NCBI GenBank assembly: GCA_037833965.1
Contig: AP031356.1
Span: 16,018,501 to 16,082,500 of the forward strand
DNA: 64,000 nucleotides
Source: Marchantia polymorpha subsp. ruderalis
Lineage: Eukaryota; Streptophyta; Marchantiopsida; Marchantiales; Marchantiaceae
Reading direction: 5' to 3'
Numbering within the stretch: position 1 is the first letter of the stretch; each line of letters begins with the position of its first letter. The position numbers were made by a program, and so were the translations under genes. Shown in pieces: positions 31,242 through 64,000 of this stretch. The notes under the pieces were generated by a model. The model did not search any database and was not told the origin of the DNA. It was given only the letters and a program-made list of their open reading frames with translations.

Positions 31242-31689
31242 TGTCTTTTTACCCTTATGAGAGTTGAAATTTTGGATTTAAGCTCTTGCAAAATTATGCT
31301 TGGGGTTTTCTGAAAGTTTTGGCAAGATTAGGAGTTGGTGTGATGGCTAGGGGGCAAAAGGTGCGAAAGGGGGCCTTCGGGGCAAGATCTTCGGCGAAGT
31401 GCCTTCGGTGAAGTCCCTTCGGGGAAAGGCCTTCGGCGAAACAATGAAACCCTCATAACGTTTTCAATGTGTCACACCTTGTGGTAACCCACTTTTTGTT
31501 TTTTTTCGGAACTAAAACATTTTTGAATAGTAAGTACCGCGGCAGCAGCTGTAAATAATAATCGGTACGCGAAACCAGAGTAAAAAGAGGATCGAGGACA
31601 GTCAAGGGGTTTTGGGCTTAGGCCACAGTGGGACGCTTGGGACGGAACGGGCGGTTCATGCTGCAGGATCCGCTTCGAGCACCTTCGGC

Positions 31690-32740
31690 GGTAGATCATT
31701 CATAACTTTTTCAATTCGTAACGCTTTGAGTTGCTTTGGGTCTTGTTGGAAAGAACTCAACGCGTTGGTTCTAACGAGCCCAAGACCTTGTGAAACGAAT
31801 GAGAGGTCACTGAGTTATGAGTGTCGGAAGTTACTGATGGGGGGCCTTCGGCGGTAGAGCGACTTTGGCGGTACGCCTTCGGCGGAAGAGCCGCCGGAAG
31901 ATGCGCCTTCGGCGGTAGACACCTTCGGGTCAACGCCTTCGGCCATGCGGGAGAGTCCATTCGGCGGAAGAGTGAATCCCTCATAACTTTCTCAATTCGC
32001 AATGCCTTGACTTGGTTGGAGCTCGACACGCTTGTTCTAACGAGCCCAAGAAGGCCTGGAACGGATGAGGACACAGGGAGTTGTGACTGTCGAAAGATGC
32101 GAAGGAGAGCGCCTACGGATAGGCGGAAGGAGTTCGAGGTGGGCGGGTAGTCTGCTGGGAAATTTGCCTTCGGCGGAAGGAATTCGCCTGCGTGTAGGCA
32201 CTTCGCCATCGGCGGAATATCCGCCTTCGGCCCTAGATGTTCGCCTTCGGGTCAACGCCTTCGGCGATGCGGGAGAGTGCATTCGGCGGAAGAGTGAATC
32301 CCTTATAACTTTCTCAATTCGTAACGCCTTGACTCAGTTAAGGTTTTGTTGGAAAGAACTCGCGACGCTCGTTCCAACGAGACCAAGAACTCTTGAAACG
32401 GATAAGGCGTCACTGAGTTATGAGCGTCGGAAGCGGCTGTCATGGTTAGGAGAGAGGCCTTCGACGTTAACAGTTAGAGGGGCCTTCGGCCCAAGGTGGC
32501 CTGCGAGTAGGAGGCTTGCGACGCGGACGCGGACGCCTGCGAGTAGGCGGCCTACTTGTAGGACGCCTGTGCAAAGGCAAACGCCTTTGGCGGAAGAGTA
32601 AAACCGTCATAACTTTCTCAATTCTTAACGGTTTGACTTAGTTAGGGTCTTCTTGGAAAGAACACAACCCGCTTGTTTCAACGAGCCTAAGAACGTTTCA
32701 AACGAAGCAGGGATCTGTGAGTTATGAGCGACAGGGGTGA
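31690..32740. repeat. tandem ~125-bp imperfect palindrome modules
   Basis: Units near 31699-31826, 31981-32090, 32305-32430 and 32609-32730. Each runs from (T)CATAACTTTYTCAATTC through TTGGAAAGA..TTCCAAC to GAGTTATGA. Outer arms (TCATAACT/AGTTATGA) and inner arms (GTTGGAA/TTCCAAC, with GGTCT/AGACC in part) pair, so each unit can fold as a long hairpin. Further units lie near 33900, 38565, 38930, 42918, 43545, 48642, 48884, 49135, 49495 and 51960, and on the minus strand near 58042, 58513 and 58798. The gaps hold short CCTTCGGCG-type palindromes. Confidence 0.8.
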
Positions 32741-33231
32741 CTGTTATAGATAGGCGACTCCATGCAGACGGGAGACTGCCTGCGCATAGGCGAGCGCCTA
32801 CGCATAGGCGAGACTCACCTCCGGTGCAGCGCAGGAAAGGAAAGGAGCCGGCGGAAGATCCGCCTTCGGCTCAAGGGACTTCGGTGCCACGTGGCAGAAG
32901 ATTCCCGATGGCGGAAGTTGGTGGGATTATGTCAAGTGTGAGACGCAGAACGGCGGGGCCCATATCTTTGCGATGGACAGTCGGATGGATCTGAAATTTT
33001 GTGGAGCCGTTGATCTCGACCGGCCACGCATGCGTGCAAATTTTCAGCCTCAGATCTTGGATGGAAAGGCGCTGGCGGCTCTGTACAGTAGGCTTAGGAT
33101 TCAGATTTAGGGTTAGGGTTAGATTTAGGTTGTAAGTTAGAGGGGAAGGCAGCCGCCGACTCCTCAGGTGTAGGATCTGTTGCGGCTCGCACCATGGCAT
33201 TGCAGTGTAGTGTTAGTTAGGACTTAGAAGG

Positions 33232-33238
33232 TATAAAG
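33232..33238 (+). promoter_or_regulatory. TATA box of LTR C
   Basis: TATAAAG in the conserved stretch GGACTTAGAAGGTATAAAG, followed about 10 bases on by a CAAGGC/GCCTTG hairpin. The same block recurs at 36980, 47144 and, on the minus strand, at 57568 and 59496. Confidence 0.7.
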
Positions 33239-34825
33239 TAGTTCAAGGCGTCTTGCCTTGTGATCTTTCCCAACATCAGAAGTGCAGATCAGGAACTCAT
33301 TTTCTCTGCGTGTTTGTGTCCTTAGTTCTGTCACCACGCAAGAGGAGCTACAACTTGGCGTTCCGCATTTTGTAGCTGAAGGCCTTCGGCTGAATGTTCA
33401 CAGCTAGTACATTGGTTAGAGACTTGAGTAGTTCGGATCTACACCCGCGGGTGATTGCCGATGCTCAGAGCCAGTGACTAGTTAGATACTTGAATAGTTT
33501 CGCCCCTACATCTTCGAGTGTTTGTTCCTGATTGTACTCCGTCGGGATTTTTCCCCTTAATGCCAAAGTGAAGTTTTGCTACTTCGTGTAAGCCTTGGTT
33601 GTAAATTCAGGTTGTGGTACCCCACTTTTGGTAATTTTGAGGAAATTAAAACATTTTTGGAAAACTGTACCCCAACAGCAATGTAAATAGCCTTCGGTGC
33701 ATCAAAACAGAGTGAATTCGGAAGATTGCAGAGATTCTCGAGGGACCTCGTAGAATCTAGGAGTTGGGTGCAGCGGTAAGGACGGGCACCACCCTCCCTA
33801 CGGGCTCTGCAGTTAGGATCCCTACGGCGCAAGGCGCAAAACCCGCCTTCGGCGCTACGTCCGCGGCGGTAGGGATATCCTTCATATTTAGGTCAACCCC
33901 CAAACTTCTTGACTTTGTTTGGGTCTCGTTGAAAAGAGCTTGATGCGCTGATTCCAACGAGCCCAAGAACGCCAACAACGGATGAGGACTCCGGGAGTTA
34001 TGAAGGTTGTAAGATACTCAGCTCTTCGCCTACGCACAGGCGGAGAAGTTTTGTCCTATGCGCGGACGAAGGAAGTCCGCCTGCGCACAGGCGAAATAGG
34101 GTTTTGAGGTAGGCGCGAAGCTCGCCTACGCACAGGCGTGCGCCTGTGCACCGGCGCTTCGGCGTCGGCGGGAAATCCGCCTTGGGCCCTAGAAATGCAC
34201 CTTGTGAGGTAGAAATTGTACGGCGCCTTATGCGCCAGCGCAACGCCGCGGACGAGCAAGGAGCCGCCAGAATAGTAAAATCCGTACGGACCGTGCGGAC
34301 TGTACGGACGGGACGGATGGATGCGCTCTTGGACGGACGGAGTTGCGGCGGCGAGAGCGCCGACGGAGAGACAAGGAACGGACAGTCTGGACGGAGTCGG
34401 TTGACCGCGGTCAATGCCTTCCGCGCCAGCGCATCGCCGCGGACGGACTTCGCTTGCGTGCAGGCGAGCGCCTGTGCACAGGAGGGTGAAGTTCCGCGCC
34501 GGCGGAGAATCCGCCGAGGAGTCCGCCTGCGCGCAGGCGGGAGTTGAACTTTTGTCCGACATGCGGACAAGCGCACCGAGGCAGAAGAGGATTGGCTGAG
34601 GAGCGGTACGAACGAGTGTACCGCGCAAGGCGGAAAATCCGCCTTCGGCGTTGCGCACCCATGTCCGCGGCGTAGTACGCTCGCGGAGTTCAAATTCGCC
34701 AATTCGAGCGTGAGAGTTTAATCGGCGACGGCGGAGCGTGAAGCCGCGCGTGAGAGCAGAGACCGTTTCAGCGTAGAGCCGGCGCGGCCATCAATTGAGT
34801 CGTCCTCCACGAGCAAGAGCCGACC

Positions 34826-36763
34826 ATGACCTTCGACCGGGAGGCGGAGAGCGTCCCATTCTTGAATTCGCGATTCCATTCTCTAGTGCGAGCTGCGCGC
34901 GTCCATCTGCTGGCTGCTAAGCATTCTCGACATCGCCGCGCAGAGGATTTCTTGGTGATTGAGGGAGAAGTGAGTGCGCGTGATTTGGAATTGAGGGCGA
35001 TTAGAGTTTGCCGAGGAAGAAAGGAGCTCGAGCGGAGCGGAAGTAGAATGAGCGAGCGGGCGAACTCCAAGAACGCAATGACGAGACCGGGCCGATTGCG
35101 GATGTTGCCGCTCCGTCTATCACAGAACGGGCTACGCGCTTTCGAGGAGCGCCTGATAGCAAGAAAGCTCGATTTCTTGCTATGGGGATGGAACTACATC
35201 TGTGGGGATATGGTGCGCGAGTGGCAAGAGCCACAGGGACCGCCTTCGCGCGGATTGCGTCCGCATGTTGATCGGTGGACGGTCCAAGATTGGGCGCAGG
35301 CATTGGGGAGATGTGCCGGCATGCCAGGGCACCTCCTCTTCGATAGTGAGAGCGTCAAGGTGACCAAGCAGGAAGAGGCACAATTCGTGGAGCTGTTCAA
35401 GAAGGGGAAGTCTACCAAGAATGGGTACAAGACCCGCGATTACAAGGATCGATTCCGCCGGACTTTGTCCGCGGCGCTGCTGCAATTACTACAGCCACAC
35501 CGCGCCTGCTACATCACATTGTGGCAGGTCTCTTTTGTGGAGTGTATCATCGAGGGAACTCCAATTCACTGGGCGAGCATCCTGCACAGGGTGATGCGAC
35601 AGCACGCTTTTGAGGAGAAGGGGGGGAACTCTAAACCATCTCTCTCCTTTCCTCATCAATTTTTATCGACAGCGGAATTGTTTGACAGCGGCGGAGCTTG
35701 CGCGTTTTCCGCCGTTGTCCGTCGACCATCCCGGGAGGTATGTGCGGGAGAATGAGGTCGACACTGATGCAGAGGAGTCACCGACTTCTACTCCGTCAAG
35801 GAGGAGGGACGAAGGGAGGAATACTCCTGCAGCACGAGGGCCGCGGAAGCGGCGATGGAGAGAGGAGTCCGAAGAAGAGCAGCATTAAGAACCCTCTGCT
35901 CCCATTCGACCGCGGCCGTTGTACGAATCGTACAGCCGGCCGAAGCAGAAGGCGCGCAGGCTGGTGTTACCAGCCAACAGCGCGGACACGGCGACGATTG
36001 CCACAGAGAAAGGAAGTGCGTCGCTAGAGAAGAACGAGGGAGCGCGGACGTCCGCAGGAGCAACGGACCACGCTGCAGCCTCGACGGACGGGAGGCCGCC
36101 TACGGGCCAAGGGCCTCCGGAGTTACCACGTGCGTTGCGCACAGGTGTTCCGTCTGCGCACAGGCGAGCCTCCGCGGACGGACGACCACAAGCGGACGTG
36201 GACCTACGCGTGGGAAGGAGCAGTTCGCTTGTGCAAAGGTCACCTCCACACGTGCCGCCTGTGCAAAGGCAAGAATCACCCCCGTTCCAACGTAGGAAGG
36301 GGAAGGAGCCGGCGGAAGATCCGCCTACGAGACACCGGCCTTCGGGGCCAGACCCTCCGGCGCACAACGCGCCGCGATTTGCGCCTTCGGCGCCAGGGCC
36401 TTCGGGCCGAGGAGATGCGAGCAGAGAGCGTGCGGAGGCCGCACCATCGGCGGGTAATCCGCCGGTAGATGCGCCTTTGGCGGTAGGGCCTCAGGGCCAA
36501 GGGACATCGGGCGAGCGGCCCCCGGCCATGTCGCCTTTGGCGATGGACGTCCGCGGCGCTGCGCCTGCGGCGGACAAGGCGCCGGCATTTGCGCCTGCGC
36601 ACAGGCCAAGCACAGCCCCCGCGGACCGATCGAGGGAGAAGCAATTGACAGAGGAGCGGACTGACTGTCGGTGGGACGAGATTTCGGTGCGCGATGCGCA
36701 ATCGAACCTCGCGCAGACACCCTCCGCTCGATCGCCTTATGCGGCGGCTGTCGGTGGCTGAGA
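34826..36763 (+). pseudogene. LTR-embedded protein of F (N-terminal domain plus Pro-rich part)
   Basis: ATG at 34826 in the context GACCATGACC, as in E. The N-terminal domain of about 260 residues has LLWGWNY, HVDRWTVQDWAQALGRC, GYKTRDYKDRFRR and a C-terminal helix block, with general similarity to 'putative plant transposon protein' domains of non-autonomous plant retroelements (a loose comparison). A +1 frameshift in a G run near 35620-35627 moves the frame, which continues to a TAA at 35886. It reopens in the same frame as a Pro/Ala/Arg-rich segment to 36761. The coiled-coil part present in J and E is deleted. Inactive copy. Confidence 0.75.
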
Positions 36764-36979
36764 GGATACGGTTGAAGGTCCACCCTCGAAGTGGAGGTGT
36801 CCGCGGCGTTGCAGCGGTTGGGACTGCGTAGTTGAGCGGAAGACTGGCAGGGTAGGGAGTTAGTGCGCGGCAGTCCGTCGCGCAGGAGACGTAGCACAGG
36901 TTCCGCGGCGTGTAGTGTAGCGTGGTTCCGTGCAGGCGTGTAGCGTAGTGCAGTGTAGTGCTAGTTAGGACTTAGAAGG

Positions 36980-36986
36980 TATAAAA
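36980..36986 (+). promoter_or_regulatory. TATA box of F
   Basis: TATAAAA in the same conserved block as LTR C, about 980 bases before the element end and downstream of the ORF. Confidence 0.65.
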
Positions 36987-37358
36987 TAGTTCAAGGCGTT
37001 TTGCCTTGGGTTCTTTCCCAAGCTCAGAAGTGCAGATCAGGAGTCCATTTCCTCTGCGTGTTTGTGTCCTTAAGTTCTGTCACCACGCATGAGGAGTTAC
37101 AACTTAGCGTTCCGCATTTTGTAGCTGAAGGCCTTCGGCCGAATGTTCAGAGCTAGCACATTGGTTAGAGACTTGAGTAGTTCGGATCAGCACCTGCGGG
37201 TGACTGCCGATGCTCAGAGCCAGTGACTAGTTAGATACTTGAACAGTTTCGCCCCTACACCTTCGAGTGTTTCTTTCTAATTGTACTCCTTCGGGATTTT
37301 TCCCCTGAATGCCAAAGTGAAGTTTTGCTACTTCGTGTAAGCCTTGGTTGTAAATTCA

Positions 37359-38556
37359 GGTTACGCTGCAGCAGGTGCCTTTGAGGTAACCCCTGTAGTA
37401 TTTCTGGGAATGACAAGTGCCTGAGAATTCAAACTCTTCAATAGACTGTTGTTGTGTTACTGGAATGTTTCTCAGTGAGTCCTTTAGTGCGGACCTGTGT
37501 TCTCTGCGTGTTTTGTGAGTTGAGAGTGTTGTTCACCGCGTATGAGTGACTTCGATCCGAAGTAGGCAGTCCAACCCGGGTTTCCTACGCTAGCAGCAAG
37601 CTAGCGGAAGTGTTGTAAAAGCCGGAGTTGGGAGTCACTACCCGCAGCTTCGTTGAGTGCACTCGCGAGAGACTTTCCCTCCCTGAAATCTTCAGTAGAG
37701 GTCCTAACGGATCTCTGGGTTGTGTTTCTGTAGTTTCAGGTGTGTGTGTGTGTGTGTGTTACGCTGCACTGTGCGACCTCCGAGTGCGCTCCGAGTGGAC
37801 ACTTGCAGTATTTCTCGGAGTGACAGTCGCCTGAGAATTCAAACTCCTCAATAGTCTGTTAAACGTGACACTTTGTACCCTGTGTGTTCCTCTGTCCCTA
37901 TGGGTTCGACCTTTCTACCACTATATTGCAGTTTTAGCCTTTAGTGGGTTATTACACAGGTTACGCTGCAGCAGGTGCCTTTGGGGTAACCCCTGTAGTA
38001 TTTCTGGGAATGGCAAGTGCCTAAGAATTCAAACTCTTCAATAGACTGTTATTGTGTTACTGGAATGTTTCTCAGTGAGTCCTTCTGTGCGGACCTGTGT
38101 TCTCTGCGCGTTTTGTGAGTTCAGAGTGTTGTTTACCGCGTATGAGTGACTTCGATCCGAAGTAGGCAGTCCAAACCGGGTTTCCTACGCTAGCAGCAAG
38201 CTAGTGGAAGTGTTGTAAAAGCCGGAGTTGGGAGTCACTACCTGCAGCTTCGCTGAGTGTACTCTTGAGAGACCTTCCCCCTGAAATCTTGAGTAGAGGT
38301 CCTAACGGATCTCTGGGTTGTGTTTCTGTAGTTTCAGGTGTGTGTGTGTGTGTGTGTGTTACGCTGCACTGTGCGACCTCCGAGTGCGCTCCGAGTGGAC
38401 ACTTGCAGTATTTCTAGGAGTAACAGTCGCCTGAGAATTCAAACTCCTCAATAGTCTGTTAAACGTGACACTTTGTACCCTGTGTGTTCCTCTGTCCTTG
38501 TGGGTTTGACCTTTCTACCACTATATTGCAGTTTTAGCCTTTAGTGGGTTATTACA
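37359..38556 (+). repeat. two direct copies of a 600-bp LTR terminal segment
   Basis: Copies at 37359-37956 (end of F) and 37959-38556 (end of C), period 600. The tandem look is a by-product of F inserting into C at this point. Each copy has GT microsatellites (near 37739 and 38338) and two related halves: TTACGCTGCA...GAGAATTCAAACTC occurs twice within each unit. Confidence 0.85.
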
Positions 38557-43284: not shown

Positions 43285-44293
43285 TGTGGTAACCCACTTT
43301 TTGGTTTTGTGTGGAATTTAAAACATTTTTGGAAAACAGTAGCACATCAACAGTGTAAATAGTAAGCGGTACATTTAAATAGAGTAAATATGGATAATCG
43401 CGGGTCTCGCATGATCTCGTAGAATCCAGGAGTTGGGCGCAATGTCCGGAACAGGCCCCTGGCCCGAACGATCGATTCTGAAGGGAACCCCCTTCAGCGC
43501 AAGGCGCATAATCCGCCTTCGGCGCTAGGGAAATTCCTCAGAGCTTATTCAATTCACAACGCCTGGACTTGGTTAGGGTTCCGTTGGAAAGAGCTCGACG
43601 CGCTCGATCCAACAAGCCCAAGAACGCTTGAAACGAATAAGGAATCAAGGAGTTATGATTGTTGGAAGATACTGAGAGGGAGTGCCTTTGGCGGAAGGGC
43701 TAGGTTGACGGACGAGCCGCCTTCGGCTCAGTCGCCTTCGGGCCTAGGTCAACGCCTTCAGGGGTGAACTGCTTCGTACTGCGCCTTCGGCGCCAGCGCA
43801 TCAAGATTAGGGATCGCCTTTGGGGGTAGCGGCTCCGTACGATCCCCCCTTCGGCCCAACGCCTTCGGCGGTACGGACATGTGCGCCTTCGGCGGAACGG
43901 AACTCCTGCGGCAAAAGCGCCTTCGGGGGAACAAGAGGGATCAACAAAAAAGACAAGACCCGTTGACTGCGGTCAACGCCTTCGGCACAGTCGCCTTCGG
44001 CGCTGCGGGTCAATGCCTTCGGCGGAAGGAGTTTGCCTTCGGCGGTATGCTCACGGCGGAACGCCTTCGGTGGTGCGGGATAAGGCATAGCTGCAAGTCG
44101 GCGATGGCGAAGGCCTCAGTCGCCGCGCTTGCACGTCCACGGCAAAGTATGATTACAAAATCAAATTCAAGGTTTGAGCGTGCGAGTCTGCACAACGGCG
44201 GAGCGTGAAAGCGAGCGTGCGAGAGGAGGGCCGTTACACCTCCAAGTCAGCGCGGCCATCAAGTGAGTCGACACTCACGACCAAGCGTCGACG

Positions 44294-47105
44294 ATGAAAT
44301 CTTCTGAGCCGAAGGCGGGCGACTCATTCTTGAATTGGCGATTTAGATTTCTAGTGAGAGCTGCGCGCGTGCACATTCTGGCAGAGAGAAATTGGATGAG
44401 AAGGCGACGCGCAGAGACGTGCAATTTAGAAGAGGAAGTATTGAGTGCGCGATCGCGGGAATTGAGTGAGAGTGGAGATTGCAGGAGGATTGCATCCGCG
44501 GGCAAGAAGCTTGGGCCTAGCAGAGGAGAGGTTGCGAGGTGCAATTTCAAGAACGCGATGGCGAAGGCATCTCAGCTACGGATGATTCCGCTGAAGCTTC
44601 CGCAGATTGGGCTGCGCGCTTTCCAGCATCAGCTGTCTGCGGTGAAGCTCGATTTCCTTCTGTGGGGATGGAATTATGTGTGCTAGGACATGGTGCGCGA
44701 ATGGCAGAAGGAGAGAGATCAGCCTACGCGCGGGTTTCGACCGCATGTAGAGCGATGGACCGTCCAGGACTGAAAGCAGGTGTTGGGAAGATGTGTGGGA
44801 GAGGACGGACATCTCATATTCGATATCGAGAGCATCAAGGTCACAAAGGAGGAGGAGATTTCCTTCGTGACCCTGTTCAAGAGTGCGAAGTCCAGCAAGA
44901 ACGGGTACAAGACGCGAGACTACAAGGATCGCTATCGAAGAAATGTTGCGGTAGCACTCCTCCAACTCTTGCAGCCGCACAAAACCACCTACATCACTTC
45001 TTGGCAGGTGTCCTTCGTGGAGCTGGCGTTGGTCGGAGCTCCAATTCATTGGGCGCGCATCTTATGGAAGATAACGCGGCAGCATGCGTTTGAGGAGAAG
45101 GGGGGATCGATCAATCACCTCTCCCCCTTCTTGATCAATTTTTATCGATCGATGGGTTGTCTAACCGCGACCGAGCGGGTTCAGTTTCCATTGCTGTCGC
45201 ACAGCAATCTCGGGCGGTATGTGAAGGATGTCGAAGTCGACACTGACGAGGAGGAGACTCCTGACTCCACACCCCCAGCCCAACCGAGAGCAGAGGAAGA
45301 ATCACTCGCAGCGCGAGTGCCGCGGAAGCGGAGATGGAAGTAAGACGCAGAAAAGAGTCAGCATCGCAATTCGAGTGCTCTCAAGCGGAAGCGGCCACTG
45401 CATGAGCTCTACAGTCCGCCAAAGCAGAAAGCACGCAGGCTAGTGTTGCCTGCAAGTAGCGCGGAGACAGGGCGTGCCGCCAGAGGGAAGGAGACACCAT
45501 CCTCGGAGGAGGATGGGGACATACGGACGGTAGAGAGGTCAGCGGACCTCCCTACTCCGAAGGCACGGACGCCTTCGGCAGAAGCAAGACGGCCTTCGAG
45601 CCAAGAGAGACGAAACGCGGCACCTACGAGGGTGCCGACAACGAATAGATGTTCCGCGCGTGCACCGTTCGCGGAGCCGCCTTCGGGGCTGGAACCTTCG
45701 GCGCAGTCGCCTACGGCGCAGCGGAGAAAGGGAAAGGAGCCGTGGGAAAATGCGCCATCGGCTCAAGGGCCTTCGGCTCAGCCGCCTTCGGCGCTATGCC
45801 TTCGGCGGAAGTGGCGCCGGCAGACGCGCATTCGGCGGGGGCACCTTTGGAGCATGACCTATCGAAGGAGCAGGACGACACGCAGAAGGGGGAGGCACGT
45901 GAGCATTCCGCACAGTTGCCTTCCGCACAAATGCCTTCGGCGGTGGACGCCTTCGGCGATGCGGAGTTGGTAGTAGCAGGCCGGGCGAGCGGTGCGAACT
46001 GGCCGCAACCTGCATCCCCCACCGCCTTAGACATTTTGGCCGGGAGCAGTGAAGCAGCAGCGGCCTCAGCAGCAGCAGACGCACAGACGCTACGCAGCCC
46101 AACTCACAAGAATCACCAAGGAATTCAGTGGCGACCGAAATCCTCAATTCGGAGGATGACGAAGAAGGAGAATCGGGATCAGCCGAGGAGGCGGAGCAGT
46201 CGGTGGCAGGCACGCCGACGGCTGCACTTTGCGAGCAGGTGGTACCTCTGCTGAGGTATCTTGATCGCAAGGTGACGGAGTACGTGGACCCCTGCAAGCC
46301 TGGGTCCTACGTTGAGTTAGTACGCAGGCGGACTCGCACTAAAGTCCGCACCAGCAAGTTGTTGGTACGCTTGGATGGGACCATTAAAGATCTGCGGGCG
46401 AAGAATGAGTGCCTGCAGGGACACATTGTTCTTACGCGGAAGGTGCAGCAGGCCGTAGACAAAGTGCGCGATGAGCAGTTTGAAGAGGCGAAGAAGGAGT
46501 TCGCCAAGGAGAAAGCGAAGCTCGCAGAGGAGCTGGATTCTGAGCAGACTCAGAATCAAATTTTGTCAGAGGAGCTCGTGCGGCAGACACGGTTGCTGGA
46601 GCAGTGTCAGCTCTTACGCCAGGCGGATGAAGAGTTAATCCGCAAACTGCAATTGGAGTGCGGGGAATTGAGAGCGCAGCGTGCGGATGCAGAGTTGCAG
46701 TTAGTAGTGGGTGAAGACGATCGCCGGCGGGAGGCAGATCGCACGAAGGAAGAGTTGGTGAGGCGAGTCAACCACTGTCTCAGAAGTTACATTCACAAGG
46801 AAGTGGCTGCGCAGGAGAAACTCACATTGCACGAGTTAGAGCTTCGTGCGGCGGGTTTGATGTCGGGTGACAGTCGGAGCCGGCGGCGAGTGGCTAAGAA
46901 GTTAGATTCGTTTCTGTCAAGGTCGCGGGACGCGATGGCAACCCTTGAGACGGAGGTGACTGCGGTGTTGTGGCGGCTGGGCTTGCGCAGCCAAGCTGAA
47001 GACTGGGCGGGTAGGGAGTTAGTGTGCAGCAGTCCGTCGCGCAGAAGGCGCAATATAGGATCTGCAGCGTGCAGCAGCGTAGCTTGGTTTCGTGCAGGCG
47101 TTTAG
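44294..47105 (+). pseudogene. LTR-embedded protein of J (full domain set, broken frame)
   Basis: N-terminal domain 44294-45343 with in-frame stops TAG 44684 and TGA 44771 (TGG in relatives) and a TAA at 45341. The Pro/Ala-rich middle passes through the frames of 45443-45973 and 45649-46254. The C-terminal domain 46128-47105 (325 codons) is intact and alpha-helical: ALCEQVVPLLRYLD, then a long heptad-rich coiled coil (AKKEFAKEKAKLAEELDSE and similar), ending near SSVAWFRAGV. It reads like a multimerising structural protein, perhaps gag-like; no zinc knuckle, protease or RT is present. Function unknown. Confidence 0.7.
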
Positions 47106-47143
47106 AGTAGCAGGTAGTGTAGTGTTAGTTAGGACTTAGAGGG

Positions 47144-47150
47144 TATAAAG
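47144..47150 (+). promoter_or_regulatory. TATA box of J
   Basis: TATAAAG in the conserved GGACTTAGAGGGTATAAAG block, just after the ORF end. Confidence 0.65.
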
Positions 47151-48046
47151 TAGTTCAAGGCGTCTTGCCTTGGGATTTTTCCAGTTTCGGAAGTACAGAA
47201 CAGGAACTCATTTTCTCTGCGTGTTTGTTTGCTTAGTTCTATCACCACGCGAGAGGAGCTACAGCTTGACAAAGATACCGCATTTTGTAGCTGAAGGCCT
47301 TCGGCTGAATGTTAAGAGCTAGTGTACTGGTTAGAGACTTGAGTAGTTCGGATCTACACCTGCGGGTGGTTGCCGATGCTCAAAGCTAGTCACTAGTTAG
47401 ATACTTGAACAGTTTCCCCCTTACACTTTCGAGTGATTGTTCCTGATTGTACTCCTTCGGGATTTTTCCCCTAAATGCCAAAGTGAAGTTTTGCTACTTC
47501 GAGTAAGACTTGGTTGTAATTCAGGTTACGCTGCAGCAGGTGCCTTCAGGGCAACCCCTGTAGTATTTCTGGGAATGACAAGTGCCTAAGAATTCAAACT
47601 CTTCAATAGACTGTTATGGTGTGCTACTGAATCGTTTCTCAGTTGAGTCTCTCAGTTCGGACCTGTGTTCTCTGCGCGTTTTGTGAGTTGAGAGTGTTGT
47701 TCACCGCGTGTGAGTGACTTTGATCCGAAGTAGGAAGTTCAACCCGGGTTCCCTGCGCTAGCAAAAACTAGCGAGTGGGTTGTAAAAGCCGGAGTTGGGA
47801 GTCACTACCTGCAGATCCGCTGAGGGTACTCGTGAGAGACTTACCCCCTGAAATCTTGAGTAGAGGTCCTAACCGACCTCTGAGTTGTGTTTCTATAGTT
47901 TCAGGTGTGTGTGTGTGTTGAGTGAACTACGCTACACTGTGCGACCTCCGAGTGAGCTCCGAGTGAACACTTGCAGTATTTCTGGGAGTGACAGTCGCCT
48001 GAGAATTCAAACTCTTCAATATTCTGTTAAATGTGACACTTTGTAC

Positions 48047-51723: not shown

Positions 51724-54700
51724 TGTGGTATCCCACTTTTGGTATTTTTAAGGAAATTAAAACATTTTTGGAAAACTGTACCGCGGCAGCAATGTAAATA
51801 GCCATCGGTGCATCAAAATAGAGTGAAATTGAAATATCGCAGAGAATCTCGAGAAAACTCGTAGAATCCAGGAGTTGGGTGCAACGTCAAGGACGGACAC
51901 CACCCTACATGCGGGATCTGAAGGAAATCCGCCTTCGGCGCTAGAGGAATTCTTCAAATGTTGGTCAATTCCCAAACGTCTCGACTTGGTTAGGGTCTTG
52001 TTGGAAAGAGCTCAACGCGCTGATTCTAACGAGCCCAAGAACGCCACGAACGGATGAGGACTCCGGGAGTTATGAAGGTCGCAAGATACTCAGCTTCTCG
52101 CCTGCGAGTAGGCGAGGAAAGTTTGTCCTATGCGCGGACGAAGGCAGTTCGCCTACGCGTAGGCGAAATAGGGTTTGACGTCGGCGAGATGGCCGCCGCG
52201 AATGTCGCCTACTCGTACGCGGGGAGGATTAAAACCTCTGCGCAGGCGGACGAGCAAGCTCGCCTACGCAAAGGCGCTTCGGCGTCGGCGGGAAATCCGC
52301 CTTCGGCCCTAGAAATGCGCCTTCGGGGTTGTAATTGTACGGCGCCTTCGGCGCCAGCGCGGACGGGCGAGGACCGAACGGAGTAGTAAAATCCGTACGG
52401 ACTGTACGGACGTAACGGATGAGTGCGCCTTCGGCCGGACGAGGTTACGGCGACAAGAGCGCCGACGGAGAGGCGAGAGAAATGGACAGACTGGACGGAG
52501 TCCGTCGACCGCGGTCAACGCCTTCGGCGCCAGCGCAGCAGCGCGGACAAACATTTGATAGGCGGACGGAATTCGCCTACGCGTAGGCGAGCGCCTACGC
52601 ACAGGCAGATGAAGTTCCGCGCCGGCGCAGATTCCGCCGGGGATTCCGCCTACGTAGAAGGGAGTTCAACTTTTGTCCGATGCGCGGACGATCGCCTTCG
52701 GCGGAGAAGGATTGGCCAGAGATTAGTACGAACGAGTGTAGCGCGCAAGGTGAGAAATCCGCCTTCGGCGCTGCGCATCCCTGTCCGCGGCGTAGTACGC
52801 CAGCGGAGTTCAAATTGCCAATTCGAACGTGTGAGTTAAGTCGGCGTTGGCGGAGCGTGAAGCCGCGTGTGAGAGAGGAGGCCGTTATAGCGCGGAGCCG
52901 GCGCGGCCATCAAGTGATTCGACCTTCACGACAGAGAGCCGACCATGACCTTCGACCAGGAGACGGAGGACGCCCCATTCTTGAATTCGCGATTTCACTT
53001 TCTAGTGCGAGCTGCGCGCGTTCACCTGCTAGCTGTTAAACATTCTAGACATCGCCGCGCGGAGGATTACTTGGTGATTGAGAGAGAATTGAGTGCGCGC
53101 GATTTGGAATTGAGGGAGATTAGAATTTGCAGAGGGAGCAAGAAGCTCGAGCGGAGCAGAGAGAGAGTTGTTGCGCAAGCTAATTTCAAGAACGCGATGT
53201 CAAGATTGAACAGGTTGCGGATGCTGCCGCTCCGGCTTCCACAGAACGGGTTGCGTGCTTTCGAGGAGCGGTTGATTGCAAGAAAGCTTGATTTCTTGCT
53301 GTGGGGATGGAATTACATTTGTGTAGACATGGTGCGCGAATGGCTGGATGCGGAGCGACCACCTACGCGCGGATTGCGTCCGCACGTAGATCGGTGGACC
53401 GTCCACGATTGGGCGCAGGCATTGGGGAGGTGTGCCGGCACCGACGAGTACCTCCTCTTTGATAGTGAGAGCGTCAAGGTGACGAAGCAGGACGAGGCGC
53501 AATTTGTGGAATTGTTCAAGCGGGAGAGGTCTACCAAGAAAGGGTACAAGACCCGCGACTACAAAGATCGCTTCCGCCAAACTGTAGCGGCGGCGCTGCT
53601 GCAATTGCTGCAGCCACACCGCACCTCATACATCACCTTGTGGCAGGTTTCTTTTGTGGAGCTCATCTTGGCCGGAGCTCCAGTTCACTTGGCGAGCATA
53701 CTGCATAGAGTGATGCGACAGCACGCCTTCGAGGAGAAGGGGGGTACGCTCAATCACCTCTCCCCTTTCTTGATAAACTTCTATCGGCAGAGGAACTGGT
53801 TGACCGCGGCGGAGCTCGCTCGCTTTCCGCCATTGTCCATCGACCATCCCGGGAAGTATGTGCGGGATAACGAGGTCGACACCGATGTAGAGGATTCACC
53901 AGCTTCTACTCCGCCGACCCGGCGGGACGATGGAAGAAGCACACCCGCAGCAAGAGTGCCGCGGAAGCGGAGATGGAGAGAGGAACCAGAGGAGGAGCAG
54001 CATCGAGAACCCACTGCTCCCATACGACAGCGGCCACTACACGAAGTGTGCAGCCGGCCGAAGTAGAAAGCGCGCAGGCTTGTGTTACCAGCTAGCAGCG
54101 CGGACGTGGCGACGATCGCCACGGAGAAGGGAAGTGCGTCACCGGAGAGGATCGAGAGAGCGCGGACGTCCGCAGGAGCGGCGGACCACGCTACACCTCC
54201 GGCGGAGGAGAGGCGGCCTTCGGGCCAAGGGCCTCCGGAGTTACCACGTGCGATGCGGACGAGTGTTCCGCCTACGCACAGGCGATTTCCAGCGGATAGG
54301 CGACCTCAAGCAGACGTGGACCTCTGCCTACGCGTAGGCAGAGAAAGTTCGCCTACGCACAGGCGGCCGCCTACGAGTAGGCAGGATTCACCCCCGGTAC
54401 AATGTAGGAAGAGGAAGGAGCCGGCGGAAGATCCGCCTTCGGGTCAAGGGCCTTCGAGACCAGACCCTCCAACGTATAACGCGCCGCGATTTGCGCCTTC
54501 GGCGCCAGGGCCTTCGGGCCAACGAGTTTTTAGCAGGGAGCGTGCGGAGACCGCACCTTCGGCGGGTAATCCGCCGGCAGATGCCGCCTTCGGCGGTAGG
54601 GCCTTCGGGGCCAGGTACATCGGGCGAGCGGCCTTCGGCTCTGTCGCCTTCGGCGGACCAGGCGCCGGTAATTGCGCCTACGCGCAGGCCAGACGTAGGA

Positions 54701-55975
54701 CTCGCGCAGGACCTAACGGAGGAGCGGATTGTCTGTCCGCGGGACAAAATTCGGGTGCGCGATGCGCAATTACACCCCGCGCAGACACATTCCGCTCGAT
54801 CGCCTTCGGCCACGGACGTCGGCGGCGAAGAGGAGACGATCGACGATCGGCAGGCGGATGATGGGGATGTAGCACGGCCACATTCACCCACCGCCTTGAA
54901 CATTTTAGCGGGGAGCAGCAAAGCTGCAGGAGTGCCATCGGCGGCAGCACCTGCAGACCACTCGCAACCCCACTCGGGCCAGTCGCCAACGCAATCAATG
55001 GCGATCGAAATCCTTCCCTTAGACGATGACGAAGGAGGATCCACGGAAGCAATGTCGGGATCGCAAGACACCGAGGAGGAGGAGGAAATCGTTGGAGCGC
55101 CGGCGGCGGCGCTCTGTGAGCAGGTAGTACCTCTGCTGAGGTACTTGGATTGCAAATTTGATAAACACGCAGATCCTCTCCAGCTTGGGTCCTACGTCGA
55201 GTTAGTGCGCAAGCGGACTTGCACTAAAGTCCACACCAGCAAGCTGCTAGCTCGGATGGACCGGGAACTTAAGGATTTGCGGGAGAAGCATGAATGCTTG
55301 TGGGGACAGTATAACCTCGTGCGGAAGTCGCACACCCACTACGACACATTGAAGAAGGCGAGACTGGAAGAGCTCACCAGGGATGTGGTGAAGACCACAG
55401 AAGAACTGATTTCTGAGAAGACTCAGAATCAGGTTCTGTCAGAGGAGCTCGTGCGACAGACGCGGTTGTTGGCGGAGTGTCAGCTCGCACGACAGGCGGA
55501 TGAGGATTTGATCTTCAGGCTACAGTTGGAGTGCAGGGAATTGAGAGCTCAGCGTGCGGAGGCCCAATCGCAGTTGGTAGTAATTGAAGATGATCGCAGG
55601 CGAGAGGCAGATCGCACGAAGGAAGAGATGGCGAGGCGCGTCTCCCACTGTCTCAAGGGCTACGCCCACTGGGAAGTGGCGGCGCAGGAGAAACTCACAC
55701 TGCGTGAGTTAGAGCTTCGTGCAGCCGGGTTGTTGGCAGGTGACAGTAGGAGTCGGCGGCGAGTAGCGAAGAAGTTAGATTCCTTTCTGTCGAAGGCGCG
55801 GGATACCATGTCCACCCTCGTATCGCCGCGGAGGTGTCCGCGGCGTTGCAGCGTTTGGGACTGCGCAGTCGAGCAGAAGACTGGCAGGGTAGGGAGTTAG
55901 TGCGCGGCAGTCCGTCGCGCAGGAGGCGAAGCACAGGTTCTGCGGAGTGTAGTGTAGCGTGGTTCCGTGCAGGCG
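51724..55975 (+). mobile_element. element E: ORF-bearing LTR-like unit
   Basis: Starts TGTGGTATCCCACTTTTGG, with left flank AGAAC. Same layout as F, with 1.2 kb of modules before the ORF at 52945. It is interrupted at 55976 by D (minus strand) just before the expected TATA block. It carries the most complete copy of the LTR-embedded protein. Confidence 0.75.
52945..55900 (+). pseudogene. LTR-embedded protein of E (most complete copy)
   Basis: About 980 codons if the lesions are ignored. The N-terminal domain (52945-54063) has LLWGWNYICVDMVREW, HVDRWTVHDWAQALGRC, YKTRDYKDRFRQTVAAALLQLLQ and HLSPFLINFYRQRN. TAG at 54064-54066 replaces the CAG seen in F, J and K. The same frame then continues through the Pro/Ala-rich middle to about 54580. 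An extra base there (GATGCCGCC versus GATGCGCC in F) shifts into the frame of 54491-55900, which holds the coiled-coil domain (ALCEQVVPLLRYLD to KKLDSFLS). A last shift alters the tail. So the original gene was one long ORF. No enzyme motif is visible. Confidence 0.75.
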
Positions 55976-56159
55976 TGTAATAACCCACTAAAGGCTAAAA
56001 CTGCAACATAGTGGTAGAAAGGTCGAACCCACAAGGACAGAGGAACACACAGGGTACAAAGTGTCACCTTTTAACAGACTATTGAGGAGTTTGAATTCTT
56101 AGGCGACTGTCACTCCCAGAAGTACTGCAAGTGTCCACTCGGAGGTCGCACAGTGCAGC

Positions 56160-56194
<35 letters not shown>

Positions 56195-56594
56195 GAAACT
56201 ACAGAAACACAACCCATAGATCCGTTAGGACCTCTACTCAAGATTTCAGGGGGAAGGTCTCTCAAGAGTACACTCAGCGAAGCTACGGGTAGTGACTCCC
56301 AACTCCGGCTTTTACAACACTTCCACTAGCTTGCTGCTAGCGTAGGAACCCCGGTTTGGACTGCCTACTTTGGATCGAGGTCACTCATACGCGGTGAACA
56401 ACACTCTCAACTCACAAAACGCGCAGAGAACACAGGTCCGCACTGAAGGACTCACTGAGAAACATTCCAGTAACACACCATAACAGTCTATTGAAGAGTT
56501 TGAATTCTCAGGCACTTGTCATTCCCAGAAATACTACAGGGGTTACCCCAAAGGCACCTGCTGCAGCGTAACCTGAATTTACAACCAAGGCTTG

Positions 56595-56787
56595 TGTAAT
56601 AACCCACTAAAGGCTAAAACTGCAATATAGTGGTAGAAAGGTCGAACCCACAGGGACAGAGGAACACACAGGGTACAAAGTGTCACGTTTAACAGACTAT
56701 TGATGAGTTTGAATTCTCAGGCGACTGTCACTCCCAGAAATACTGCAAGTGTCCACTCGGAGCGCACTCGGAGGTCGCACAGTGCAG

Positions 56788-56818
<31 letters not shown>

Positions 56819-59140
56819 CTGAAACTACATAAACACAACCCAGAGATCCGTTAGGACCTCTACTTCAGGATTTCAGGGGGAAAGTCTCTCACGAGCACAC
56901 TCAGCGAAGCTGCGGGCAGTGGCTTCCAACTCCGGCTTTTACAACACTTCCACTAGCTTGCTGCTAGTGTAGGAAACCCGGTTTGGACTGCCTACTTCGG
57001 ATTGAAGTCACTCCTACGCGGTGAACAACACTCTCAACTCACAAAACGCCCAGAGAACACAGGTCCGCACTGAAGGACTCACTGTGAAACATTCCAGTAA
57101 CACAACAACAGTCTATTGAAGAGTTTGAATTCTCAGGCACGTGTCATTCCCAGAAATACTACAGGGGTTACCCTCAAGGCACCTGCTGCAGCGTAACCTG
57201 AATTTACAACCAAGGCTTACACGAAGTAGCAAAACTTCACTTTGGCATTCAGGGGAAAAATCCCAAGGGAGTACAATCAGAAAGAAACACTCGAAGGTGT
57301 AGGGGCGAAACTGTTCAAGTATCTAACTAGTCACTGGCTCTGAGCATCGGCAGTCACCCGCAGGTACAGATCCGAACTACTCAAGTCTCTAACCAATGTA
57401 CTAGCTCTGAACATTCGGCCGAAGGCCTTCAGCTACAAAATGCGGAACGCTAAGTTGTAACTCCTCGTGCGTGGTGACAGAACTCAAGGACACAAACACG
57501 CAAAGGAAATGGGTTCCTGATCTGCACTTTTGATGGGAAAGAACCCCAGGCAAAACGCCTGGAACTATTTTATACCTTCTAAGTCCTACCTAACACTACA
57601 CTGCACTACCATGGTGCGAGCCGCAACAGATCCTACACCTGAGGAGTCGGCGGCTGCCTTCCCCTCTAACTTACAACCTAAAACTAACCCTAACCCTAAA
57701 TCTGAATCCTAAGCCTACTGTACAGAGCCGCCAGCGCCTCCCATCCAAGATCTGAGGCTGAAAATTTGCAGGCATGCGTGGCCGGCCGAGATCAACGGCC
57801 CCACGAAATTTCAGATCCATCCAACCGTCCATCGCAAAGATATGGGCCCCGCAAGATCTCTGAACCTAGGCCAAAATTCCTTCTCCAAAATCCGAGGACT
57901 GTGGGTCCCACGCGTCCTACACGCAAGCCGCCTACTCGCGGGCCGCCTTGGGCCGAAGGCCCCCTCTAACTGTTAACGCCGAAGGCTCCTCTATATGTTA
58001 ACGCCGAAGGCCTCTCTCCTAACCAAGACAGCCGCTTTCAACGCTCATAACTCCTTGACGCCTTATCCGTTTCAAGAGATCTTGGTCTCGTTGGAACCAA
58101 CTCGTCGAGTTCTTTCCAACGAGACCCGAATCAAGTCAAACCGCTAAGAATTGAGAAAGTTATGTTGGTTTTACTCTTTCGCCGAAGGCGTTCGCCTATC
58201 CACAGTCCGTCCGCGGCGATGACCTGGCTGTCCGCGGCGCTGAGCTGTCCGTCCGCGGCGCTGAGCTGTCCGTCTGCGGCGTTGTCCTGGCCGTCCACGG
58301 CGCTGACCTGGCCGTCCGCGGCGCTGCGCTGGCGCAGAAGACGCCGTACACTTTCTACCTCACAAGGCGCATTTCTAGGGCCCAAGGCGGATTTCCCGCC
58401 GACGCCGAAGCGCCTGTGCACAGGCGAACGCCTGTGCGCAGGCGAACTTCCTTCGTCCGCGCATAGGACAAAACTTTCTTCGCCTGTGCGTAGGCGGAAA
58501 GGTGAGTATCTTGCGACCTTCATAACTCCCGGAATTCTCCTCCGTTCGTGGCGTTCTTGGGCTCGTTAGAATCAGCGCGTCGAGCTCTTTCCAACGAGAC
58601 CCTAACCAAGTCGAGGTGTAGCGAATTGAGAAAGTTATGAGGGATTCACTCTTCCGCCGAATTCACGCTCCCGCATCGCCGAAGGCGTTGACCGAAGGCG
58701 TCTACCGCCCAAGGCGCATCTTCCGGCGGTTCTTCCGCCGAAGGAGTACCGCCAAAGTCGCTCTACCGCCGAAGGCCCCCCATCAGTAACTTCCGACACT
58801 CATAACTCAGTGATCTCTCATCCGTTTCACAAGTTCTTGGGCTCGTTAGAACCAGCGCGTTGAGCTCTTTCCAACGAAACCCTAAGCATTTCAAAGCGTT
58901 ACGAATTGAGAAAGTTATGAGTGATCTACCGCCGAAGGTGCTCGAAGCGGATCCTGCAGCATGAACCGCCCGTTCCGTCCCAAGCGTCCCACTGTGGCCT
59001 AAGCCCAAAACCCCTTGACTGTCCTCGATCCTCTTTTTACTCTGGTTTCGCGTACCGATTACTATTTACAGCTGCTACCGCGGTACTTACTATTCAAAAA
59101 TGTTTTAGTTCCGACAAAAAACAAAAAGTGGGTTACCACA
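56595..59140 (-). mobile_element. solo LTR C2 (2546 bp, minus)
   Basis: Ends TGTGGTAACCCACTTTTTG...TTATTACA in minus sense, with perfect TSD GCTTG at 56590-56594 and 59141-59145. It shows the full ORF-less LTR: palindrome modules (minus; near 58798, 58513 and 58042), TATA near 57568-57574, U5 tail, 600-bp segment with a CA microsatellite near 56792-56818. Confidence 0.88.
58207..58332 (-). repeat. 21-bp minisatellite with GTCCGCGGCG core
   Basis: Several 21-base units (with 18-base variants nearby). On the minus strand they give seven-residue units such as SAADGQL. Located inside solo LTR C2, so a protein role is unlikely. Confidence 0.7.
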
Positions 59141-59554
59141 GCTTGCACGAAGTAGCAAAACTTAACTTTGGCATTCAGGGGAAAAATCCCGAAGGAGTAC
59201 AATCAGGAACAGTCACTCGAAGGTGTAGGGGCCAAACTATTCAAGTATCTAACTCGTCATTGGCTCTTAGCATCGGCAATCACCCGTAGGTGTAGATCCG
59301 AACTACTCAAGTCTCTAACCAATGTACTAGCTCTGAACATTCGGCCGAAAGCCTTCAGCTACACGATGCGGATCGCTAAGATGTAGCTCCTCTTGCGTGG
59401 TGACAGAACTAAGGACACAAACACGCAGAGAAAATGAGTTCCTGATGTGCACTTCCGAAATTGGGAAAGAACCCAAGGCAAGACGCCTTGAACTACTTTA
59501 TACCTTCTAGGTCCTAACTAGCACTACACTGCACTACGCTACACGCCGGCACGG

Positions 59555-59676
59555 AACCACGCTACACTACACTCCCCAGAACCTGTGCTTCGCCTTCTGC
59601 GCGACGGACTGCCGCGCACTAACTCCCTACCCTGCCAGTCTTCCGCTCAACTGCGCAGTCCCAACCGCTGCAACGC
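59555..59676 (-). pseudogene. C-terminal end of LTR-embedded protein in D
   Basis: Minus-strand match to the last ~40 codons of the J/E protein and its 3' flank (homologous to 36840-36930 and 55850-55975). Cut off at 59676 by G. Confidence 0.6.
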
Positions 59677-59744
59677 TGTGGTAACACACTTTTTGTTTTT
59701 TTGCAAAATTTAAACAATTTAGAAAAGAAGTACCGAAGCAGTGT
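59677..59744 (+). repeat. truncated 5' LTR of G
   Basis: 68 bases identical to 63802-63869 apart from one A/G difference, then an abrupt switch to internal sequence (GCAGGAAGAAGTGC). Confidence 0.85.
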
Positions 59745-63801: not shown

Positions 63802-64000
63802 TGTGGTAACACACTTTTTGTTTTTTTGCAGAATTTAAACAATTTAGAAAAGAAGTACCGAAGCAGTGTCTGTAGTTAGGATTTGGTACGTTAAATAGAG
63901 TGGATTGAGGAGATTGTCACGAGGTCACGAAGAATCGCGAAGTTGGACGTACCAGCGCCAAATGCCTTCGGCGCCTTCGGCAAGATCTCCTTTACTGAGG
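63802..64000 (+). repeat. start of 3' LTR of G
   Basis: Begins TGTGGTAACACACTTTTTG and continues with GTACCGAAGCAGTGTCTG and then CCTTCGGCGCCTTCGGC-type repeats, closely following H (42570 on). It runs off the window end. Confidence 0.88.

What the first reader, a model, noticed from the sequence alone, without database searches (positions are those of the whole stretch)
33613..37956. A giant LTR family that carries a long protein gene inside its U3
F is bounded by a 5-bp TSD (CAGGT) and has the same start (TGTGGTA..CCCAC) and end (GTGGGTTATTACA) as the ORF-less solo LTRs C and C2, which have their own TSDs. In F, J and E a ~980-codon gene lies between the LTR start and the LTR TATA box, with no LTR end or TATA before it. 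Three copies with one layout argue against an accident. LTR-borne genes are rare (MMTV sag is the classic animal case). The protein has an unknown N-terminal domain, a Pro-rich linker and a coiled coil.
Basis: partly seen in the sequence, partly recalled or inferred. Interest (0 to 1): 0.88.

Follow-up and report, generated by a model that had tools for sequence, protein, structure and literature searches.

The report
Liverwort retrotransposon with gene-bearing LTRs
A jumping element of a liverwort (Marchantia) carries a conserved extra protein gene inside the repeats at its own two ends, an arrangement otherwise best known from a mouse tumour virus, so the gene is doubled at every jump and stays behind when the rest of the element is lost.

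Summary
The finding holds up. The window lies in a 241-Mb genome whose proteins mark it as Marchantia. F (33613-37956) is a complete LTR (TSD CAGGT) nested in an ORF-less LTR; it and its relatives carry an ORF between LTR start and LTR TATA box. Past the window end, element G (59677-68742, TSD AACGC) has pol, a polypurine tract and a 4,941-bp 3' LTR holding the ORF (with stops). Young relatives settle it: one element (TSD GATTT) has two 99.98%-identical LTRs of about 4.4 kb, both with a long open frame; a tandem unit has two 4,868-bp LTRs (5 differences), each with an intact 851-codon ORF ending 33 nt before the TATA box. A solo LTR with its own TSD also carries it. The genome holds 1,141 exact polypurine-tract/LTR junctions; of 30 inspected, integrase precedes 30 and the ORF start follows in 24. 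dN/dS is 0.10 in the N-terminal domain in the best-resolved pair. The protein (N-domain, P/S/T/A-rich linker, probable coiled coil, basic clusters, no transmembrane-like segment) has no convincing family match; every named homologue is Marchantia. Location in the LTR is near certain; function (a nuclear accessory factor) is inference.

The parts
33613..37956 (+). F: complete ORF-bearing solo LTR (4,344 bp), nested in C
   Evidence: TSD CAGGT; empty site aligns without gap; 39 other scored copies with 5' ends 95-97% identical (best 40 of 3,169 candidates scored); 2 of the 30 fetched loci are 3' LTRs behind integrase and PPT
34826..35755 (+). F: first open piece of the LTR-borne ORF (309 codons, N-terminal domain)
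35889..36758 (+). F: second stop-free piece (290 codons, other frame)
36980..36989 (+). F: LTR TATA box (TATAAAATAG), downstream of the ORF
31480..33612 (+). C: ORF-less LTR, 5' part (TSD CACCT)
37957..38556 (+). C: ORF-less LTR, 3' part, split from the 5' part by F
43285..48046 (+). J: third ORF-bearing LTR subfamily, 3' end missing; TATA at 47144
   Evidence: no LTR end found
51724..55979 (+). E: ORF-bearing LTR, 5' part; continues at 75264-76283 (outside the window), TSD AGAAC
52945..55900 (+). E: LTR-borne ORF, broken by a stop at 54064 and a frame change
55976..56594 (-). K: 3' end of an ORF-bearing LTR on the minus strand (start at 75263 outside the window; TSD CGCCT), inserted in E
56595..59140 (-). 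C2: ORF-less LTR, TSD CAAGC, inserted in K
59141..59676 (-). K: further part, between C2 and G
59677..59744 (+). G: remaining first 68 bp of its 5' LTR (98.5% identical to its 3' LTR start), TSD AACGC
60282..60923 (+). G: aspartic protease region
   Evidence: PF13650, E 1.4e-5
61119..63764 (+). G: pol (RT, RNase H, integrase), 881 aa
63789..63801 (+). G: polypurine tract GAGGAGGGGGGCA
63802..64000 (+). G: start of the 3' LTR (ends at 68742 of the extended contig; 4,941 bp; ORF, then TATA at LTR position 4004)

Best explanation
SHOWN: this is a large group of Ty3/gypsy LTR retrotransposons of a Marchantia liverwort (LTRs about 4.3-5.4 kb, internal part about 5.8 kb with gag, protease, RT, RNase H, integrase) whose U3 carries a conserved protein-coding gene, present in both LTRs of young elements and in solo LTRs. 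The gene starts about 1.0-1.35 kb after the LTR start in the F, E, J and G subfamilies and in the intact copies stops 33 nt before the TATA box. INFERRED: because U3 enters the genomic RNA only at its 3' end, the gene is the last cistron (gag-pol-PPT-gene-R), would share the R poly(A) site, and would need a spliced or internally started mRNA, as described for MMTV sag. Reverse transcription copies the single 3' U3 into both LTRs, so the gene is duplicated at each round and left behind in each solo LTR. INFERRED, weak: the product is a nuclear, self-associating accessory factor (basic clusters, probable coiled coil, no transmembrane-like segment) acting in trans on the element's nuclear phase: its transcription, release from silencing, or choice of integration site. 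The confidence below is for location, inheritance and coding constraint; the nuclear-factor role alone I put at about 0.3.
For: Full element with TSD GATTT, frame open in both LTRs, LTRs 99.98% identical. Tandem unit with two 4,868-bp LTRs, 5 differences, 851-codon ORF in each. Solo LTR L041:3833-8708 with TSD AGTGC inside an RT gene and a 679-codon ORF; joined flanks match pol without a gap over 400 bp. G: TSD AACGC, PPT, ORF-bearing 3' LTR. 1,141 PPT/LTR and 1,238 LTR/PBS junctions, reversed-pattern controls 0. Of 30 inspected PPT junctions 30 have integrase upstream and 24 the ORF start within 1.5 kb. Constraint: third-position excess in 6 of 7 pairs tested, e.g. L046/G3 88/76/200 differences at codon positions 1/2/3, p 1.8e-17; L046/G3 dN/dS 0.10 (N-domain), 0.26 (linker), 0.28 (C-terminal); 0.12-0.27 over all 28 pairs of eight copies, 0.17-0.26 between subfamilies, on up to 372 N-terminal codons; pol 0.03-0.09 in 7 of 8 unsaturated pairs. 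An LTR deletion in L047/L048 leaves a 786-codon stop-free frame.
Against: No transcript or protein evidence. No TATAAA or TATATAA upstream of the ORF in the seven ORF-bearing LTRs scanned, so an internal promoter has no support; splice sites were not tested. ORF-less LTRs (C, C2) are common and evidently transposed, so the gene is not needed in cis. Many copies are broken. Six of 30 junction loci show no ORF start within 1.5 kb. Total DNA divergence of the ORF is no lower than that of the upstream U3 in most pairs (e.g. L046/G3 0.143 against 0.149; L046/L048 0.026 against 0.011), so the constraint shows only by codon position; the pair F/L042 shows no significant excess (7/5/12, p 0.2); linker and C-terminal dN/dS reach 0.33-0.45 in close pairs. 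Structure predictions were poor (pLDDT 55.7 and 53.9). The coiled-coil reading rests on inspection and a simple periodicity count with mixed results.
Confidence: 0.93

Rival explanations
1. The ORF lies between pol and a separate, smaller true 3' LTR (env-like position), and the apparent LTR start is only a repeat.
For: In some plant LTR retrotransposons extra ORFs lie after pol (recalled). The R-U5 part aligns well between subfamilies while the 5' part of U3 hardly does, which could look like a small LTR.
Against: The whole 4.4-4.9 kb, ORF included, is repeated at both ends with 99.9-99.98% identity, in L047/L048 with a TSD outside; the polypurine tract abuts the start and the PBS follows the end; units F, E, K and the L041 solo LTR have TSDs exactly at these ends.
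Confidence: 0.01
2. F-type units are TIR DNA transposons with a transposase-like ORF.
For: Termini form an imperfect 13-bp inverted repeat (TGTGGTA.CCCAC / GTGGGTTATTACA) and there is a long ORF.
Against: The same unit occurs as a 3' LTR directly after integrase and PPT (L015, L025; 30 of 30 junctions of the group) and 5' copies precede a tRNA-complementary PBS; no convincing transposase domain in Pfam.
Confidence: 0.01
3. The ORF is a passenger: a sequence once captured in U3, kept open by chance or by GC-rich composition, with no role.
For: ORF-less LTRs are common; many copies are broken; no expression data; F's own 318-codon frame is within chance; ORF DNA as a whole is no more conserved than upstream U3 in most close pairs.
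Against: The 886-codon open frame exceeds all 500 simulations (maximum 367). Third-position excess in 6 of 7 pairs and N-domain dN/dS 0.07-0.12 in the three G-type pairs. The ORF is in F, E, J, G and a more divergent lineage (L077, ORF about 51-56% identical), whose pol synonymous sites are saturated against G's, so it has been kept through long divergence.
Confidence: 0.12
4. The long U3 is kept as DNA or RNA (enhancer, structured RNA) and the ORF is incidental.
For: U3 is normally regulatory; within subfamilies upstream U3 is about as conserved as the ORF.
Against: Constraint has codon periodicity; between F and G the 5' 1.2 kb of U3 gives only a 60-bp match while the ORF aligns over 868 columns; no Rfam match in L046.
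Confidence: 0.05

Closest known systems
MMTV sag (betaretrovirus superantigen gene)
   Same: Most of the gene lies in U3 of the LTR, with transcripts from several promoters, and most sag copies found in mammal genomes were solo LTRs (PMC4667437; passages seen; that paper calls LTRs 'ordinarily non-coding').
   Different: No shared Pfam family; no transmembrane-like segment (best 19-residue hydropathy 1.22); the host is a plant and the element Ty3/gypsy; the protein is much longer (sag length recalled).
[not shown]
   Same: Possibly the same broad clade: no chromodomain and no second RNase H in the Pfam scan of pol; PBS complementary to a tRNA-like 3' end.
   Different: The passages seen mention no gene in the LTR; the separate ORFs they describe lie upstream of gag or of pol. 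Clade membership was not tested by a tree.
Lentiviral nef and foamy-virus bel genes (recalled, no call)
   Same: Accessory genes near the 3' end reaching into U3.
   Different: They overlap U3 only partly; here the whole gene lies inside the LTR.
Plant extra-ORF retrotransposons such as Ogre or Grande (recalled, no call)
   Same: Extra protein of unknown function in a Ty3/gypsy element.
   Different: Extra ORF in the internal region, not in the LTR.
Genes embedded in maize LTR retrotransposons, e.g. Fie2 (PMC1560396; passages seen)
   Same: A gene within an LTR retrotransposon.
   Different: A host gene in particular insertions, not a family-wide LTR component.

Membership tests
LTR retrotransposon, Ty3/gypsy | Two near-identical LTRs with TG...CA ends and a 5-bp TSD | tested here: met
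   L047/L048: 99.98%, TSD GATTT
LTR retrotransposon, Ty3/gypsy | gag, PR, then RT-RNase H-integrase in this order | tested here: met
   PF03732, zf-CCHC, PF13650 in L045 (the last 23.7 bits, just under its cut-off 24.3; gag in two frames) and PF13650, PF00078, PF17917/PF17919, PF00665 in G
LTR retrotransposon, Ty3/gypsy | PPT before the 3' LTR and PBS after the 5' LTR | tested here: met
   The PBS lies 22 nt from the LTR end; compared by eye, its 18 nt equal the complement of CCA plus a 15-nt end found at 29 genomic places. That these are tRNA-Asp genes is recalled and was not tested
Tat/Athila clade | RT/IN phylogenetic placement | not tested
   No reference sequences were aligned; a guess from the missing chromodomain, the PBS and PMC10508981
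Retroelement with an LTR-borne gene (sag-like layout) | Complete gene inside U3 in both LTRs | tested here: met
   L045:3059-5614 and L046:1517-4072
MMTV sag family | Sequence homology to sag | tested here: not met
   No sag family among the Pfam matches of the ORF proteins (one search showed 25 of 26 families)
MMTV sag family | Membrane-anchored protein (recalled feature) | tested here: not met
   Highest 19-residue Kyte-Doolittle mean 1.22 in the L046 protein
MMTV sag family | Expression from spliced or internally started mRNA | not testable with these tools
   No RNA data
TIR DNA transposon | Transposase and no association with reverse transcriptase | tested here: not met
Transposase_32 (PF20167, plant transposon protein) | HMM match | tested here: inconclusive
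   1 of 31 members at E 0.21, cut-off not reached; no match in the genome, but the 14 controls also gave none

The most novel reading that the evidence does not exclude
A plant Ty3/gypsy lineage has moved a trans-acting regulator, possibly an anti-silencing or targeting factor, into its U3. Each jump doubles the gene and LTR-LTR recombination leaves it behind, so solo LTRs build a dispersed, self-seeding reservoir of the regulator that could serve autonomous and ORF-less relatives alike. As far as the ten literature searches made here show, it would be the first known plant counterpart of sag-type LTR coding.
Probability: 0.25. Interest if true: 0.88.

Novelty: new variant of a known kind. Interest (0 to 1): 0.74.

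Why it matters
LTRs are normally treated as non-coding. Here a whole group of plant retrotransposons carries a conserved gene there, with over a thousand exact LTR junctions of the group in one genome and near-identical young copies. It shows U3 coding outside retroviruses, accounts for dozens of 'hypothetical protein' gene models of Marchantia, and means that solo-LTR formation does not remove this part of the element's coding capacity. Marchantia is a tractable haploid model, so the accessory protein's role can be tested directly.

Tried and rejected
Rejected readings: ORF outside the LTR; DNA transposon; ORF derived from gag (hhalign probability 0.2%). Known domains were sought in Pfam, NCBIfam, PHROGs, PDB sequences and, for the DNA of L046 only, Rfam, without a convincing match. 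PF20167 was followed as a lead and left inconclusive. A genome-wide tally of intact ORFs could not be had. Literature: ten searches of the held open-access library were answered. No listed title or abstract start described a gene carried in a plant LTR; I saw listings, not whole papers, and subscription journals and preprints are not covered.
Full report
WHAT WAS CLAIMED AND CHECKED. The window is C7:16018501-16082500 of a 241-Mb genome in nine contigs. Homologues of the ORF place it in Marchantia: the best is Mp_8g15400 at 94% identity over 48% of the query. The exact species is not settled.

BOUNDARIES. Perfect 5-bp TSDs flank F (CAGGT), C (CACCT), G (AACGC), C2 (CAAGC), K (CGCCT) and E (AGAAC). 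The units form a nest: F in C; G and C2 in K; K in E; E in another minus-strand copy (M2). Flanks joined minus one TSD copy align across the junction to homologous LTR sequence: F in C 397 columns, 0 gaps; C2 in K 397, 2 gaps; E in M2 399, 4 gaps; K in E 363, 6 gaps; G in K 229, 0 gaps, but only 28 bp past the junction. J starts properly but its end was not found.

THE DECISIVE TEST. Past base 64000, G has its integrase end, the polypurine tract GAGGAGGGGGGCA, then an LTR of 4,941 bp (63802-68742) ending in TTACA and followed by the same AACGC that precedes the 68-bp remnant of its 5' LTR at 59677. This LTR holds the ORF in one frame broken by two stops (stop-free pieces of 308, 276 and 255 codons) and then the TATA box at LTR position 4004.

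YOUNG RELATIVES. The pol search scored 52 of 4,866 first-look candidates; all 52 (the window's own copy included) cover the 881 aa without a stop, and nearly all of the others have almost the same score. I fetched pieces of two. L047/L048: TSD GATTT outside, LTRs of 4,446 and 4,445 bp at 99.98% identity, each with a 786-codon stop-free frame despite a deletion relative to G. L045/L046: a tandem unit whose two 4,868-bp LTRs differ at 5 positions, each with an intact 851-codon ORF at LTR 1355-3910; TATA at 3944, 33 nt after the stop. L041:3833-8708 is a lone LTR of this type in the RT gene of an F-type element, with TSD AGTGC and a 679-codon ORF. F-type LTRs directly follow integrase and PPT at L015 and L025, 2 of the 30 F-type loci fetched.

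SCALE. Exact PPT/LTR junctions: 1,141; exact LTR/PBS junctions: 1,238; reversed-pattern controls 0 and 0. Of the first 30 listed PPT junctions, all on contig C1 and some evidently copies of one another, 30 have integrase upstream and 24 have the ORF start within 1.5 kb; in the other six it is missing, interrupted or further on. From the C1/C2 rows of the capped lists (77 PPT, 93 PBS), 49 internal regions could be paired and 46 of them measure 5,767-5,802 bp; 8 of 77 LTR starts lie in tandem arrays with LTR lengths of 4,861-5,385 bp. Whether the ORF is open in those arrays was not checked.

CODING CONSTRAINT. DNA alignments of seven pairs: third codon positions differ most in 7 of 7 and significantly in 6 of 7: L046/G3 88/76/200, p 1.8e-17; L046/solo041 14/18/38; L046/L048 11/12/34; E/F 50/36/107; E/M2 14/14/40; E/J 91/98/159; F/L042 7/5/12, p 0.2, not significant. 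Nei-Gojobori dN/dS for L046/G3 is 0.10 (N-domain), 0.26 (linker), 0.28 (C-terminal part); in the closer pairs L046/L048 and L046/solo041 0.12 and 0.07 (N-domain) but 0.33-0.45 elsewhere. Over the N-terminal part, 28 pairs of eight copies give 0.12-0.27, the between-subfamily pairs 0.17-0.26, with synonymous sites near saturation in the distant ones, so those ratios are rough. Pol for comparison: 0.03-0.09 in 7 of 8 unsaturated pairs, 0.20 in one; all six F/E-type against G comparisons saturated. AGAINST: total divergence of the ORF is no lower than that of the upstream U3 in most of these pairs (L046/G3 0.143 against 0.149, L046/L048 0.026 against 0.011, E/J 0.312 against 0.306; lower in E/M2 and F/L042), so the constraint shows by codon position, not by overall conservation. 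Between F and G the ORF is near saturation at synonymous sites (pS 0.67-0.71) as pol is, so the ORF does not look recently swapped in. Neutral decay of dead copies inflates all these ratios.

THE PROTEIN. N-domain of about 235 residues, linker of about 325 (48% P/S/T/A), C-terminal part of about 290 residues with probable coiled coil (by inspection; periodicity count mixed); basic clusters (RRSERIPRKRK at 251, RRRR at 827); no transmembrane-like stretch. In 31 aligned members the Pfam matches were scattered over one or two members each: gag families in one gene model that runs on into gag, otherwise Extensin_1 (E 1.9e-4, 1 of 31), SKG6 (0.0016, 1), CENP-K (0.0018, 2), as expected for low-complexity and coiled-coil stretches. 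Nothing in PDB sequences, NCBIfam or PHROGs. Database homologues: 29 (28 named, all Marchantia polymorpha), 97 (81 named, all M. polymorpha; 16 unnamed), 14 of 14 M. polymorpha. These searches need shared 5-residue words, score a capped candidate list, and many liverwort genomes may be absent, so 'Marchantia only' is provisional. Many are AXG93 gene models, so annotation has counted pieces of this LTR as host genes.

HOW IT PROBABLY WORKS. Shown: the gene is inside U3, replicates with the LTR and is constrained. Follows from retroviral replication (established knowledge): U3 is copied from the 3' end of the genomic RNA into both LTRs, so one gene per RNA becomes two per insertion and one per solo LTR. 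Inferred: the gene is read as the last cistron of the genomic RNA, with the R poly(A) site, through splicing or an internal start; only one TATAAA/TATATAA was found in each of the nine LTRs scanned (seven with ORF). Inferred and weaker: a nuclear accessory factor. The ORF-less LTRs C and C2, whose last 1 kb is 94-95% identical to F's but whose U3 holds a repeat array, look like derivatives that may rely on factors given in trans.

Noticed in passing
G000 C2:31345316-31384681 and others: Tandem arrays of LTR-internal-LTR-internal units sharing LTRs, e.g. four PPT junctions with an exact 11,184-bp period; 8 of 77 listed C1/C2 LTR starts are of this kind.
   Followed up: partly
window 31480-59744 with L009, L041, L047: Strong self-nesting: F, E, K, G, C2, the L041 solo LTR and the L047 element are each inserted in another member of the same group; it may reflect targeting or simply a retrotransposon-rich region.
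   Followed up: partly
window 31480-33612 and 56595-59140: The ORF-less LTRs C and C2 carry repeat units of roughly 200-300 bp where the ORF would be; C-type copies are abundant (3,212 first-look candidates; the 40 scored are 96-100% identical).
   Followed up: partly
L045:6573-6612: The primer binding site starts 22 nt after the LTR end rather than at it; by eye it matches the 15-nt end found at 29 genomic places plus CCA.
   Followed up: partly
L077: A divergent lineage with LTR start TGTGGTAGTGCAG, integrase 65-75% and ORF 51-56% identical, the ORF only about 580 bp into the LTR; perhaps the clade of P0028, P0045 and P0090.
   Followed up: no
P0077, P0090 (database proteins): Marchantia gene models that seem to join this ORF's domain and integrase pieces in one protein (judged by eye), as expected if gene finders read across pol and the LTR.
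   Followed up: no
LTR termini of the group: Imperfect 13-bp terminal inverted repeat (TGTGGTA.CCCAC / GTGGGTTATTACA), longer than the usual TG...CA.
   Followed up: no
window 40115, window 50487, L010:774: Another repeat holding CTGTGGTATTGAGAA, three copies seen; a 206-bp repeat at 39548 and 50256 lies close by two of them.
   Followed up: no
window 19951-22482: Open 843-aa leucine-rich-repeat protein gene with a probable C-terminal membrane segment, outside the nest (membrane segment judged by eye).
   Followed up: no
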